Source: a virus
Length of the DNA: 25,284 bases
Reading direction: 5' to 3' (one strand)
IMG/VR virus record: IMGVR_UViG_3300029448_000398
Location: 1 to 25,284 of that record
Shown: positions 174-8,470 of the stretch, one piece after another
How positions within the stretch are numbered: the stretch's first letter is position 1
How the letters are laid out: the number at the start of each line of letters is the position of its first letter
Notes under the pieces: generated by a model
The model's input: the letters and a program-made list of their open reading frames with translations, nothing else
Told to the model about the DNA's origin: nothing
Database searches by the model: none
Made by a program: the position numbers and the translations under genes

Positions 174-613
174 CTCTGAAGCCCTTTGATAAGATAGTAT
201 GCTTTGATAAGGGCTTTCTCATACTTACTCTTTACACTTCTAGGATCACAATGAAACCGCTTGGACAGGTACTTCCATCGAGGGCCACGCTCTCTGTTGA
301 CTGCACTCTGCACAGTATACCATAGCACCATTCTATCTTCCTTCTCTAACTCCCATCCTACTTCCAAAGCAAACTCTAACCGGGTAATGTCATCCGTAGT
401 TGGTGTAATCCTTACTTCCTTCTCCCAACCATAACCGCTCCAAGCATTCGCCAAGGCATAACTAGGCCATACAGAACTATACTGCTTTCTTTTAATAACA
501 GGAGGTAAGTGATGCAACGTAGTAGCTGCTTGCTTATACAGCAGATCCAGACTAGGCATATCCCAGTTCATTGCAAGTAAACGTTGATTTGTTATTCTAC
601 TTTTTCCAACCAA
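170..613 (-). CDS. DUF6362-like phage protein with C-terminal helix-turn-helix
   Basis: A 147-aa protein of unknown function. It resembles the DUF6362 family I recall from alphaproteobacterial phages: an N-terminal block AATTLHHLPPV, a central YGWEKEVRITPTTDDITRLE stretch, and a C-terminal part (about 112-140, RWKYLSKRFHCDPRSVKSKY) that reads as a sigma-like helix-turn-helix. A DNA-binding role is inferred. The best start is TTG at 611-613, because GGAGAAGG lies 4 bases upstream; this start overlaps the end of the preceding gene by 22 bases. An ATG at 569-571 has no visible ribosome site. It is the last gene of the leftward early operon. Confidence 0.72.
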   Translation of the reverse strand: MVGKSRITNQRLLAMNWDMPSLDLLYKQAATTLHHLPPVIKRKQYSSVWPSYALANAWSGYGWEKEVRITPTTDDITRLEFALEVGWELEKEDRMVLWYTVQSAVNRERGPRWKYLSKRFHCDPRSVKSKYEKALIKAYYLIKGLQS

Positions 614-1158
614 TTTGCCTTCTCCGTTTTACTCATACGATGTACAGCTCGTACCACCTGATGATAGTAGTCCCGGCTACATCGTGGCTTTAACTTGCGT
701 AAAGCTTTCTCAACACGCCAATCAATATCATCCATCCTTGCTCTGCGTTGTTTAGCTATCTTGTAACCACTCTTCATATTTAACTTTGCCTTCTTCACAA
801 GTGACGCAACCTTGCTAGGATCTATCAATAGTGATTCGCTCTTTTGTTCATAACTGTCAATATCCTTAACAAAGGGTTGCTTGTTATCTTGATTAAAACT
901 GTTGGTTTTCTGTGCCTTATTTTTTTTACTCTTGACAGCACTTTTTTCAGCCCCTACTACTGTACTGTACTCTCTAGTGTACTCTCTAGTATGCTCTCTA
1001 CTAGCACTTCTCTTAAAAACATTATTAAGAATTAGGGGTTTACTCTTGATGCTTACTCTAGAGTACTCTCTAGTGTACTCTCTAGTATGCTCTCTACTAG
1101 CACCCTGATAAAACGTATACGACAAGTCCGGTTCGTTATAAAATACTTTACAACTCAT
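592..1158 (-). CDS. Basic phage protein with an in-frame internal duplication
   Basis: A 188-aa Lys/Arg-rich protein that I do not recognise. Residues 20-33 and 52-65 carry the same sequence, ASREHTREYTREYS, encoded by a 41-bp direct DNA repeat; within each copy the TREY unit is itself repeated. The middle (about 70-105) is low complexity and polar. The C-terminal third (about 120-188, with DDIDWRVEKALRKLKPRCSRDYYHQ) looks folded and may bind nucleic acid. The ATG overlaps the TGA of the 51-aa ORF upstream (ATGA), and the 3' end contains the ribosome site of the next gene, so it sits in a translationally coupled operon. A replication or DNA-binding role would be a guess. Confidence 0.65.
   Translation of the reverse strand: MSCKVFYNEPDLSYTFYQGASREHTREYTREYSRVSIKSKPLILNNVFKRSASREHTREYTREYSTVVGAEKSAVKSKKNKAQKTNSFNQDNKQPFVKDIDSYEQKSESLLIDPSKVASLVKKAKLNMKSGYKIAKQRRARMDDIDWRVEKALRKLKPRCSRDYYHQVVRAVHRMSKTEKANWLEKVE
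967..1103. repeat. Pair of 41-bp direct repeats built of 12-bp units
   Basis: Positions 967-1007 and 1063-1103 are identical over 41 bases and lie 96 bases apart, a multiple of three. Each copy consists of two 12-bp units (gtactctctagt) and a diverged third (atgctctctact), so one unit equals four codons (TREY) of the overlapping gene. CTAG is repeated throughout. The pattern suggests slippage or recombination that kept the reading frame. Confidence 0.9.
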
Positions 1159-1310
1159 GCTACCCCCAACTCTTTCACCAATGGATAAATCGCCATAAGC
1201 TTATCCTTGTACTTCTTGCGAAGAGAGATCTCCGCTTCTATGTCATCTACAAAACGATACAGTTTATACTGCACCCACCTCTTGCCCTGTACTGCTGCTA
1301 TATAATTCAT
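1155..1310 (-). CDS. Small ORF (51 aa) between adenine methyltransferase and repeat protein
   Basis: This ORF begins MNYIAAVQGKRWVQYKLYRF and ends VKELGVA. The ATG at 1308-1310 is preceded by AGGGAGATATAGAGC, a good ribosome site. It starts inside the last 47 bases of the adenine methyltransferase gene, and its TGA overlaps the ATG of the next gene (ATGA). Coupling at both ends and a complete fit of the otherwise empty gap argue that it is real. The product is probably soluble and helical (DDIEAEISLRKKYKDKL). I do not recognise the family. Confidence 0.7.
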   Translation of the reverse strand: MNYIAAVQGKRWVQYKLYRFVDDIEAEISLRKKYKDKLMAIYPLVKELGVA

Positions 1311-1830
1311 GCTCTATATCTCCCTGTTTAATTGGTTTATCCAATACCTCATACTGGCATTGCTCTGAATGTGGCTTGTTCCATATTGCTATGGCTAACG
1401 CTCTATCCGGCTTGCCACCCTTACCAAGATAGTCCTCTCTCCACGTTAAGTTTATCCAATGGCTAGGTCGATACCTACACCATTGACTGTACCCTCTACC
1501 GCAAGCCCATAAACGCTCCGGGCATACCAACATCATCTGCTCCACCCCTATGGCAAAAGCGTGATCTATAAACTCCCTAATACTGCTAAATGGTGGATTA
1601 GTTACTAGTGCCGGAGCTAATCTTTCCTTATACCAGTAAAAGTTCTGATTAGTGCGTATATCTGTAGATATTACTTGCCTGTTATTCTTGCTTAAAGCGT
1701 TACTGAAACGCATATCCCCTGCACAAGGTTCCCATATATGTTTTTGATCCCAATGTGTATCCACGAGCTTTACAACTGTTTCTACAATCGTAAAAGGTGT
1801 AGGGTAAAAGTCATGAGGATTTCTTGTCAT
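1264..1830 (-). CDS. Adenine-specific DNA methyltransferase (N6, class I Rossmann)
   Basis: A 188-aa SAM-dependent methyltransferase that transfers a methyl group to adenine in DNA. An N-terminal DFYPTPFTIVE segment precedes the SAM-binding motif I, EPCAGD (about 34-39), and the catalytic motif IV, NPPF (about 78-81). The acidic D of ISTDIR after motif I fits motif II. It is compact and lacks an obvious target recognition domain, as in short phage orphan enzymes. No cognate restriction gene is present, so protection of phage DNA or regulation is more likely than a restriction-modification system. ATG at 1828-1830 is preferred over the adjacent GTG because AAGGA sits 5 bases upstream. The start overlaps the preceding 56-aa ORF. 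Confidence 0.85.
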   Translation of the reverse strand: MTRNPHDFYPTPFTIVETVVKLVDTHWDQKHIWEPCAGDMRFSNALSKNNRQVISTDIRTNQNFYWYKERLAPALVTNPPFSSIREFIDHAFAIGVEQMMLVCPERLWACGRGYSQWCRYRPSHWINLTWREDYLGKGGKPDRALAIAIWNKPHSEQCQYEVLDKPIKQGDIEHELYSSSTGQEVGAV

Positions 1831-1981
1831 CACTATCCTTTTTAAGTTCCATAGGATCTGCCTTGGTATTAATCGTATACTTGAGATCGTTGTCTCTTAT
1901 TCTGCAAAAGAGAAAGTCGTTTAGCTCTGATAGCTTAGGCTTTCTGTTGGCTACAAAAGTTATAACTATCTCATACTTCAT
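1811..1981 (-). CDS. Small ORF (56 aa) between the two methyltransferase genes
   Basis: The product begins MKYEIVITFVANRKPKLSEL and ends DDKKSS. The ATG at 1979-1981 lies inside the end of the cytosine methyltransferase gene and is preceded by AAGGAG at good spacing (7 bases). Its TGA lies 20 bases inside the adenine methyltransferase gene, so it bridges the two. The N-terminal beta-strand-like run (EIVITFVA) followed by a charged helix suggests a small folded protein. I do not recognise the family; a role linked to the methyltransferases is only positional inference. Confidence 0.68.
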   Translation of the reverse strand: MKYEIVITFVANRKPKLSELNDFLFCRIRDNDLKYTINTKADPMELKKDSDDKKSS

Positions 1982-2957
1982 CCCATAGCTCCTTCATTGC
2001 CAATCCCAACTGATACACCACTTGAGGTACTACTGCATTGCCAAGCATCTTCAATCTTTGCACCCTCCCTGCTTGATTTGTTGTAACTCTTGGGATGTCA
2101 GGTTCGTCCAACCACGAGGGAACCCCATCAACCACTCCACCCAATCTGCGTTCAATGCTCCCTTTTTTTGCTTCTCCTCGAACAGTATCGCATCCGATAG
2201 TTTTGCTCCGTATGTCATATGAGGTTTGTTTTTCTTGCGTAGTATGTATCCGCCTTTGTTTGTTCTCTCTACTCGATCTGATTGCTCTCCCCCCTCTACG
2301 CATCCTACTGTCGGTGTTGGCCACATCTGTTGGTCTCTCAATTTCACTTCTGCTGCTAATGTTATTTGATTGTTCTTCTTCTTCAGATTGCGAGCGTACT
2401 CCCCCTGATCGTTCACGTCTTGCTTGTACATCCCTTGTGTTGGAGTAGGCCACAATCCAGACACGCTCTCTTTTATGGTTGGCATCGACTGCTGAAGCTG
2501 GAATAACAAACGCCCTCGTGGAGTAGCCTTCACCTTCCAAGTCAAGTAACACTTCATCGAGACCCAAGACAATGTGACCAGACACGTTCTCGCAAAGGAT
2601 GAGAGAGGGTCTTTTTTGTTTAATAATTTCAAACATTCTCGGCCAGAGGTGGCGGTCATCTTGCGTGCCTTTTTGCTTCCCGGCAACTGAAAATGGCTGA
2701 CAAGGGAAGCCACCGACGATACAGTCGATTTCTCCGCAACTGTCTGGGTCAAAGGTTTTAACATCTCCCCAAACAGGGACATCTGGCCAATGTCTTTTGA
2801 GTATGTGTTGGCAGTATGGGTCGTATTCAACGAACTGGACTGTTTCAAAATATCCTGTTGCTTCAAGTCCAAGGTCGATCCCTCCGATACCTGCGAAGAG
2901 TGAGAGTGTTTTGATTTTTTTATGCTCATACATACTCCTACATATACTTTGCTGCAT
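1971..2957 (-). CDS. DNA (cytosine-5-)-methyltransferase
   Basis: A 328-aa C5-cytosine methyltransferase. Motif I, LSLFAGIGGIDLGLE (18-32), binds SAM. Motif IV, GGFPCQPFS (82-90), contains the catalytic Cys86. ENV (123-125) is motif VI, RERVW (163-167) is motif VIII, and GNAVVPQ (306-312) is motif X. Between motifs VIII and X, where the target recognition region should be, the protein is a low-complexity Arg/Ser/Glu-rich stretch (about 172-270). This is the region where another frame on the same strand encodes a better-looking protein (2051-2929). The ATG at 2955-2957 has GAGG 5 bases upstream and overlaps the end of the preceding gene by 20 bases. It probably modifies phage DNA against host restriction; no restriction endonuclease is visible. 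Confidence 0.93.
   Translation of the reverse strand: MQQSICRSMYEHKKIKTLSLFAGIGGIDLGLEATGYFETVQFVEYDPYCQHILKRHWPDVPVWGDVKTFDPDSCGEIDCIVGGFPCQPFSVAGKQKGTQDDRHLWPRMFEIIKQKRPSLILCENVSGHIVLGLDEVLLDLEGEGYSTRAFVIPASAVDANHKRERVWIVAYSNTRDVQARRERSGGVRSQSEEEEQSNNISSRSEIERPTDVANTDSRMRRGGRAIRSSRENKQRRIHTTQEKQTSYDIRSKTIGCDTVRGEAKKGSIERRLGGVVDGVPSWLDEPDIPRVTTNQAGRVQRLKMLGNAVVPQVVYQLGLAMKELWDEV
2051..2929 (-). CDS. Methyltransferase-associated phage protein encoded in a second frame inside the C5 methyltransferase gene
   Basis: A 292-aa ORF on the same strand as the cytosine methyltransferase, shifted by one base and wholly inside it. It carries conserved-looking blocks: SGRECLKLLNKKDPLSSF (95-112), MKCYLTWKVKATPRGRLLFQ (125-144), two WPTPT motifs (160-164 and 203-207), and a C-terminal NADWVEWLMGFPRGWTNL (260-277). 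I recall phage proteins with these same blocks (LTWK...RLLFQL...LxPTPT...WVEWLMGFPxGWT) annotated near cytosine methyltransferases, so this is very probably translated. The ATG at 2927-2929 has AGGAG exactly 5 bases upstream, better than any internal methyltransferase start. The function is unknown; a partner or specificity subunit of the methyltransferase is an inference. Confidence 0.75.
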   Translation of the reverse strand: MSIKKSKHSHSSQVSEGSTLDLKQQDILKQSSSLNTTHTANTYSKDIGQMSLFGEMLKPLTQTVAEKSTVSSVASLVSHFQLPGSKKARKMTATSGRECLKLLNKKDPLSSFARTCLVTLSWVSMKCYLTWKVKATPRGRLLFQLQQSMPTIKESVSGLWPTPTQGMYKQDVNDQGEYARNLKKKNNQITLAAEVKLRDQQMWPTPTVGCVEGGEQSDRVERTNKGGYILRKKNKPHMTYGAKLSDAILFEEKQKKGALNADWVEWLMGFPRGWTNLTSQELQQIKQGGCKD

Positions 2958-8194: not shown

Positions 8195-8470
8195 TTAACA
8201 TTTCCATCTTCTCCTTGCTTGTCTCAAACGTGAGTTAGGGTTCTTTGCTGCCTTCGGAAACTTCTTCATTTGTCCTGCACTTCTAGCACAAAAAGACTTT
8301 CTTCTTTTAGCAGCTTTACTTCCCGGCTTTACTTTACCAGTAACAGCAGTTTTAAGTTTAGATCCGGGGTTCTCTCTTCTGTATCTAGCTACACCTGCTT
8401 TGGTCATACCTGCACCAGACTTTGTAGATCTAAAATACTTTTTAGTTTTAGGTGGTTGCTTCTCAGCCAT
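8195..8470 (-). CDS. Small basic phage protein, DUF6321-like
   Basis: A 91-aa very basic protein. The blocks GAGMTKAGVARYRRENPGSK, LKTAVTGKVKPGSKAAKRRK and SFCARSAGQMKKF, with the ending RLRQARRRWKC, match a family I recall from marine phages as DUF6321. The function is unknown; the charge suggests DNA binding or packaging within the virion. It is the last gene of the late operon, directly before attP. Its ATG overlaps the stop of the preceding 47-aa gene (TAATG). Confidence 0.78.
   Translation of the reverse strand: MAEKQPPKTKKYFRSTKSGAGMTKAGVARYRRENPGSKLKTAVTGKVKPGSKAAKRRKSFCARSAGQMKKFPKAAKNPNSRLRQARRRWKC

What the first reader, a model, noticed from the sequence alone, without database searches (positions are those of the whole stretch)
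2051..2929. A second 292-codon gene is encoded in another frame inside the cytosine methyltransferase gene
Two long frames on the same strand both look translated. The outer frame has the full C5 methyltransferase motif set. The inner one has repeated WPTPT, a YLTWK...RLLFQL block and WVEWLMGFPRGWT, which I recall from methyltransferase-associated phage proteins. Each has its own ribosome site at 5-base spacing (GAGG before 2957, AGGAG before 2929). Where the methyltransferase becomes Arg/Ser/Glu low complexity (its residues about 172-270), the inner frame carries its best motifs, as if the constraint had moved from one frame to the other. The methyltransferase lacks a clear target recognition domain in exactly this region.
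Basis: partly seen in the sequence, partly recalled or inferred. Interest (0 to 1): 0.82.

Follow-up and report, generated by a model that had tools for sequence, protein, structure and literature searches.

The report
Methyltransferase specificity part in overlapping frame
This phage's DNA-methylating enzyme is very probably made from two proteins read from the same stretch of DNA in two frames, one holding the catalytic core and the other the part expected to choose the target; the same arrangement occurs in hundreds of other phages and prophages.

Summary
The 292-aa inner ORF (2929..2051, -) lies wholly inside the C5 cytosine methyltransferase (MTase) ORF (2957..1971, -) in the +1 frame. 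Of 199 untruncated viral loci fetched with outer-frame queries only, 193 carry the same inner ORF with its WVEWLMGFP motif. In 68 independent pairs from such loci, selection hands over between frames. Motifs I-VIII: outer dN/dS 0.12-0.16, inner 0.38-0.56. Target-recognition position: outer 0.88-1.03, inner 0.11-0.17. WVEWLMGFP motif: inner 0.05-0.13. Motif X: outer 0.10-0.11. Shine-Dalgarno sites before the inner start are enriched.

The inner protein's C-terminal half is homologous (hhalign E 3e-17) to the segment between motifs VIII and X of relatives in which everything is in one frame; one such relative models as a complete HhaI-type enzyme.

Best explanation (inferred, about 0.8): a two-subunit MTase. 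The outer protein is catalytic (I-VIII, X); the inner supplies the target-recognition segment and motif IX. M.EcoHK31I, which needs two polypeptides with motif IX only in the small one, is the known precedent. New here are the extent, the selection evidence, and a fused/split/nested series. No expression or methylation data were available. Phage N15 of E. coli K-12 carries the arrangement and is a ready test.

The parts
1971..2957 (-). Outer frame: C5 MTase catalytic subunit (motifs I-VIII and X, no motif IX); more likely start 2933
   Evidence: PF00145 1.7e-45, TIGR00675 4.3e-40, phrog_363 7.9e-74; start by comparison with relatives
2051..2929 (-). Inner +1-frame ORF, 292 aa: proposed recognition/motif IX subunit
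   Evidence: phrog_1008 1.3e-28; homologues at the same place and frame in hundreds of loci; purifying selection
2935..2939 (-). Shine-Dalgarno AGGAG, 5 nt before the inner ATG at 2929
   Evidence: sequence; SD enrichment at inner starts across relatives
2927..2933 (-). Tandem start codons ATG-T-ATG, outer then inner, 4 nt apart
   Evidence: ATG/GTG/TTG-N-ATG kept in ten relatives
2439..2915 (-). Outer motifs I-VIII (includes GGFPCQPFS and KRERVWIV)
   Evidence: PDB/HhaI alignment; outer dN/dS 0.12-0.16
2480..2674 (-). Inner N-terminal domain (aa 86-150, YLTWK..RLLFQL), overprinted on the outer motif IV-VIII region
   Evidence: AF2 pLDDT 75-92 over this part; inner dN/dS 0.38-0.56 in region A
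2168..2458 (-). Inner WPTPT repeat segment (aa 158-254) at the recognition-domain position; outer frame here evolves near-neutrally in relatives
   Evidence: outer dN/dS 0.88-1.03, inner 0.11-0.17; homologous to in-frame segment of fused enzymes
2102..2161 (-). Inner GALNADWVEWLMGFPRGWTN, motif IX position
   Evidence: invariant WVEWLMG in 67-73 homologues; inner dN/dS 0.05-0.13; in-frame in fused enzymes
1995..2057 (-). Outer motif X (RLKMLGNAVVPQVVYQLGLAM), mostly after the inner stop
   Evidence: sequence; outer dN/dS 0.10-0.11 in region X

Best explanation
The locus encodes a two-subunit cytosine-5 DNA MTase from one stretch of DNA. The outer frame makes the catalytic subunit (AdoMet and Cys-loop motifs I-VIII, and motif X). 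The inner +1 frame, started from its own Shine-Dalgarno site 4 nt after the probable outer start, makes a second protein that carries what the catalytic chain lacks between motifs VIII and X: the target-recognition segment (WPTPT repeats) and motif IX (LNADWVEWLMGFPRGW). Its N-terminal domain, overprinted on motifs IV-VIII, may help it bind the catalytic subunit. The two assemble, and the inner protein sets the site methylated on phage (and perhaps host) DNA; no restriction partner was seen among the neighbouring ORFs, so this is probably an orphan protective enzyme. Over most of the recognition region the outer frame is only a tolerated linker leading to motif X. Shown: both frames conserved and selected, homology of the inner C-half to the in-frame segment, conserved initiation sites. 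Inferred: translation of both, association, specificity, biological role.
For: Same nested inner ORF in 193 of 199 untruncated loci found with outer-only queries. Frame-resolved dN/dS, 22 and 46 independent pairs: motifs I-VIII outer .12/.16, inner .38/.56; recognition position outer .88/1.03, inner .11/.17; WVEWLMGFP region inner .05/.13; motif X outer .10/.11; control pseudo-inner in the 5' non-overlap .97/1.10; a second set agrees. Outer fourfold sites are suppressed where the frames overlap. SD match of 5 or more nt in 145 of 246 loci against 58 expected. hhalign of inner against fused enzymes: probability 98.9, E 3.3e-17, inner 158-276. Fused enzyme L501 models as a full HhaI-type fold, Z 23.4 over residues 1-343. 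The WVEWLMG motif is in the outer chain or in +1, almost never in both. Precedents: M.EcoHK31I and M.AquI consist of two polypeptides, with motif IX, or IX-X, in the smaller one (PMC3404938).
Against: No expression, binding or methylation data. Similarity of the WVEWLMGFP motif to canonical motif IX is not statistically significant (hhalign probability 0.7, E 0.087, although placed exactly at IX). AF2 of the inner protein alone is weak (mean pLDDT 60; repeats about 60 or lower) with no significant PDB match. In L145-type enzymes motif IX is in the outer chain while WPTPT-like repeats stay in a separate +1 ORF, so the division of labour varies. The window against all its close relatives gives no resolved signal in the fast-changing recognition segment.
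Confidence: 0.8

Rival explanations
1. Shadow ORF: the inner frame is open and looks conserved only because the outer MTase is conserved and codon use disfavours stops.
For: Outer motif VIII (RVWIVAYSNT) does write GLWPTPT in +1, so part of the similarity is inherited; the inner N-half is only moderately constrained.
Against: Outer synonymous sites are strongly suppressed under the inner motif (.012-.085 against .24-.64 outside). At the recognition position the outer frame is near-neutral and the inner is constrained. The pseudo-inner ratio is about 1 in the non-overlap control. The same kind of sequence is read in the catalytic frame in fused enzymes. SD enrichment.
Confidence: 0.03
2. Programmed frameshifting: ribosomes pass from outer to inner after motif VIII, and in nested loci back again before motif X, making a single complete MTase chain.
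For: Selection changes frame at the domain borders; in split relatives one shift would give a full enzyme.
Against: The inner frame is already constrained upstream of motif VIII, where a frameshift product would not use it (inner dN/dS .38-.56). SD-start sites for the inner ORF are enriched at fixed places. Nested loci would need two opposite shifts. Slippery sites were not searched for systematically.
Confidence: 0.1
3. The inner product is a separate protein that regulates or protects (for example an inhibitor or an anti-restriction factor) and is not part of the MTase.
For: No catalytic motif, no Pfam or NCBIfam match, N-terminal domain without a known fold match.
Against: Its C-half lies inside the MTase chain of fused enzymes at the recognition/motif IX position, and the outer chain lacks motif IX when the inner has it.
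Confidence: 0.06

Closest known systems
M.EcoHK31I (YGGCCR), two-polypeptide C5 MTase
   Same: Large subunit has motifs I-VIII and X; motif IX is in a smaller second polypeptide; two proteins are required in vitro (PMC3404938 and the title of the paper it cites). I recall that its small subunit is also encoded in an overlapping alternative frame, but could not verify this here.
   Different: The cited text places the predicted recognition domain of M.EcoHK31I in the large subunit; here selection places it in the inner protein. Sequences could not be compared.
M.AquI (CYCGRG)
   Same: Two subunits; motif IX in the smaller one (PMC3404938). Split relatives L029, L106 and the mycobacteriophage loci match this layout.
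   Different: In M.AquI the small subunit also has motif X; in the window motif X stays in the outer chain, and the inner gene is wholly nested.
PHROG 1008 (DNA methyltransferase)
   Same: The inner protein, split second subunits and the C-half of fused Hamulus-type enzymes all match it.
   Different: The label does not say that members lie in an alternative frame of another MTase gene or lack catalytic motifs.
K1 coliphage 'Mte8-like' ORF, Paenibacillus phage double MTase annotations, N15 gene 58
   Same: The same nested pair is annotated in K1ind2/K1ind3 and Paenibacillus phage Bloom; N15 gene 58 holds an unannotated 215-aa nested ORF with the same motifs.
   Different: The records give no function for the second frame beyond a methyltransferase label.

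Membership tests
C5 cytosine MTase (PF00145) | Catalytic PCQ loop and motifs I-VIII in the outer frame | tested here: met
   PF00145 1.7e-45; HhaI alignment over residues 15-178
C5 cytosine MTase (PF00145) | Motif X | tested here: met
   GNAVVPQ in outer; constrained in relatives, dN/dS .10-.11
C5 cytosine MTase (PF00145) | Motif IX in the same chain (single-chain enzyme) | tested here: not met
   Absent from outer; alignment A2 shows the segment missing relative to fused L041/L049
M.EcoHK31I-type two-polypeptide C5 MTase | Large subunit with I-VIII and X, motif IX in the small one | tested here: met
   Layout of the window and of most relatives; identity of WVEWLMGFP as motif IX rests on position in fused enzymes; direct profile match to canonical IX is inconclusive
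M.EcoHK31I-type two-polypeptide C5 MTase | Recognition domain in the large subunit (as predicted for M.EcoHK31I) | tested here: not met
   Outer dN/dS .88-1.03 and inner .11-.17 over that region in relatives
M.EcoHK31I-type two-polypeptide C5 MTase | Both polypeptides needed for methylation | not testable with these tools
   needs an experiment
M.AquI-type split C5 MTase | Small subunit carries motifs IX and X | tested here: not met
   Motif X is in the outer frame of the window; the feature is met in L029, L106, L505-L530
PHROG 1008 | Profile match | tested here: met
   1.3e-28

The most novel reading that the evidence does not exclude
The recognition/motif IX segment of phage C5 MTases is frame-mobile: small indels have repeatedly moved it between the catalytic frame (fused), a +1 ORF that also takes motif X (split) and a +1 ORF nested inside the catalytic gene, each time kept alive by an internal start and an overprinted docking domain. 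Most enzymes of this phage clade would then be heterodimers whose specificity is encoded in the other frame and can change without touching the catalytic protein; a second C5 MTase lineage (L537-L554) would have done the same independently.
Probability: 0.45. Interest if true: 0.75.

Novelty: new variant of a known kind. Interest (0 to 1): 0.62.

Why it matters
Long same-strand overlaps with both frames under strong selection are rarely documented in dsDNA phages. Here one is conserved across hundreds of phages and prophages in many bacterial phyla, often with only one frame annotated. If correct, catalysis and target choice of a common phage enzyme are written over each other in two frames, recombinant expression of the annotated gene alone may give inactive enzyme, and families named DNA methyltransferase (PHROG 1008) are largely subunits without catalytic motifs. 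The fused/split/nested series makes the origin of an overlapping gene directly testable.

Tried and rejected
Chance or shadow ORF: rejected by synonymous-site and frame-resolved tests. The first dN/dS run with protein-guided alignment gave near-equal ratios in the variable region, probably because of misalignment; it was replaced by nucleotide alignment with contiguous blocks. A canonical-MTase control for synonymous rates was spoiled: most of the viral loci fetched turned out to carry another +1 ORF; the 5' non-overlap of the same genes was used as control instead. PDB by sequence found nothing for the inner protein, and Foldseek with its weak model found nothing significant. Literature: ten searches of the open library gave no paper describing this nested pair in phages; the M.EcoHK31I source paper is not held, and plasmid searches did not find that system.

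Full report
1. The observation. The outer ORF (2957..1971, -) is a C5 cytosine MTase: PF00145 1.7e-45, phrog_363 7.9e-74, TIGR00675 4.3e-40, and an alignment to M.HhaI over residues 15-178. The inner ORF (2929..2051, -) is 292 aa, entirely inside it, in the +1 frame, so each outer third codon position is an inner second position. It has no Pfam or NCBIfam match, but matches phrog_1008, labelled DNA methyltransferase (1.3e-28). One correction: in ten close relatives an outer start codon lies exactly 4 nt before the inner ATG (for example ATGAATG, GTGAATG, TTGAATG), and the window has ATGTATG at 2933/2929, so the outer start is probably 2933.

2. Not chance, not a shadow. Because outer motifs write similar letters in +1 (outer VWIVAYSNT gives inner GLWPTPT), similarity alone proves nothing, and the tests had to remove what the outer protein imposes. 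(a) Synonymous shuffles of outer codons predict 3-9 stops in the inner frame of most loci, observed none; the third frame behaves as expected (conditional on the ORF chosen). (b) Fourfold-degenerate outer sites differ in .24/.48/.64 of cases in the 5' non-overlap and .32/.45/.63 in the 3' non-overlap, but .11/.19/.32 where the inner frame overlaps motifs I-VIII and .012/.023/.085 under the inner WVEWLMGFP motif (identity bands 85-97, 75-85, 62-75%). (c) Loci fetched with outer-frame queries only: 193 of 199 untruncated loci carry the inner motif in an open +1 frame, and the single locus with the motif in the outer frame lacks it in +1. Canonical MTases from chromosomes of the same hosts mostly have a closed +1 frame and do not have the motif there.

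3. Hand-over of constraint. Every site was classified by its effect in both frames (in the manner of OLGenie, own script), on loci fetched by outer queries, 22 pairs at 78-98% and 46 pairs at 62-78% identity. 5' non-overlap: outer not measurable/.07, pseudo-inner .97/1.10 (the control). Motifs I-VIII: outer .12/.16, inner .38/.56. Recognition position: outer .88/1.03, inner .11/.17. WVEWLMGFP region: outer .15/.61, inner .05/.13. Following stretch: outer .17/.16, inner .27/.33. Motif X beyond the inner stop: outer .10/.11. A second set, drawn mostly from inner-query loci, agrees. In the window's own clade the pattern holds for three independent pairs (recognition region outer .57, inner .19), but the window against all its close relatives is not resolved there because the segment turns over too fast.

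4. Initiation. A match of 5 or more nt to the Shine-Dalgarno sequence precedes an inner-frame start in 145 of 246 loci against 58 expected under synonymous shuffles; no match at all in 29 against 139 expected. Starts cluster either at the beginning of motif I or about 54-58 codons after it.

5. What the inner protein is. Across the relatives there are three layouts. Nested, as in the window: outer has I-VIII and X, the +1 ORF has the repeats and WVEWLMGFP. Split: the outer ORF stops after motif VIII and the +1 ORF carries repeats, a WVEWLMGFP-like motif and motif X (L029, L030, L106, and 28 actinophage loci; in mycobacteriophage Yecey3 both are annotated as overlapping DNA methyltransferase genes). 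Fused: one frame holds everything (Hamulus group), or holds WVEWLMGFP and X while repeats remain in a +1 ORF (L041, L145 group). Alignment A2 shows that WVEWLMGFP is an internal segment of fused chains that is missing from nested outer chains. Profile comparison of 67 inner proteins with 26 fused enzymes gives probability 98.9, E 3.3e-17, inner 158-276. A fused enzyme, L501, models with pTM 0.79 and matches M.HhaI over its whole length, Z 23.4, 252 residues, 3.2 A. So the inner C-half corresponds to the recognition plus motif IX segment. Direct similarity to canonical motif IX falls on the right place but is not significant. Fused and split forms are mixed within actinophages (near-identical L457 fused and L467 split), and nested, split and fused forms together make one clade apart from canonical enzymes (support 99, quick tree).

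6. Mechanism. The economical reading is a heterodimer: outer catalytic subunit, inner recognition and motif IX subunit. The inner frame is constrained upstream of motif VIII and has its own start signals, which argues against frameshifting as the main route, although that was not excluded. Two-polypeptide C5 MTases are known: M.AquI (I-VIII plus IX-X) and M.EcoHK31I (I-VIII and X, plus IX alone in the small polypeptide), and artificial fragments of other C5 MTases complement each other (PMC3404938). The modelled inner N-terminal domain (aa 86-150) is the only confidently folded part of the inner protein on its own besides the motif helix; its role in docking is a guess. The role of the enzyme (protection of phage DNA) is inferred from family knowledge.

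7. Known or new. The nested pair is annotated here and there (Paenibacillus phage Bloom, K1ind2/K1ind3, Xanthomonas PhiXhv-28), but ten searches of the open library found no paper describing it. I recall that M.EcoHK31I's small subunit is itself encoded in an overlapping frame, but the source paper is not held; if so, the window is close to a known type and differs in having the recognition segment in the small subunit. Hence new variant of a known kind.

8. Limits. All evidence is comparative. Region definitions rest on own HMMs and regular expressions. AlphaFold could be run only on single chains. The canonical-enzyme control of synonymous rate failed for lack of clean sequences.

Noticed in passing
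L537-L554, L379: A second C5 MTase lineage with canonical motif IX in the outer frame also has a +1 ORF of roughly 180-230 aa over motifs IV-VIII; it carries a segment (ILEEN..KYFLS..KHKEKGNGFG) that canonical enzymes L353/L355 read in the outer frame.
   Followed up: partly
L029:4052-5464, L030:4055-5467: Split-type second subunit with an inserted stretch between WPTP repeats resembling a helix-turn-helix module (TIEHWFRKDKSGFSHPS...); Pfam only weakly suggests HTH.
   Followed up: no
L557:10821-11468 (phage N15, inside gene 58): Unannotated 215-aa nested +1 ORF with the same motifs in a laboratory phage of E. coli K-12.
   Followed up: partly
L045:1359-2303 (KT997847): The outer MTase frame appears broken (two outer pieces in different frames), and the record annotates the inner frame as a putative cytosine-specific methyltransferase.
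   Followed up: no
L108, L111: Gut Clostridia loci where WVEWLMG-like motifs occur in two frames and motif X sits in a third frame or in the inner ORF; possibly intermediates of frame displacement or assembly errors.
   Followed up: no
window 1264-1833 (-): A second methyltransferase-like gene (phrog_799, 1.2e-22) lies just downstream of the MTase pair.
   Followed up: no
window 592-1158 (-): Predicted protein with a duplicated peptide, ASREHTREYTREYS, in its N-terminal half.
   Followed up: no
window 8195-8470 (-): 91-aa Lys/Arg-rich protein (KPGSKAAKRRKSFCARSAG...), overlapped by a 124-aa ORF on the other strand.
   Followed up: no
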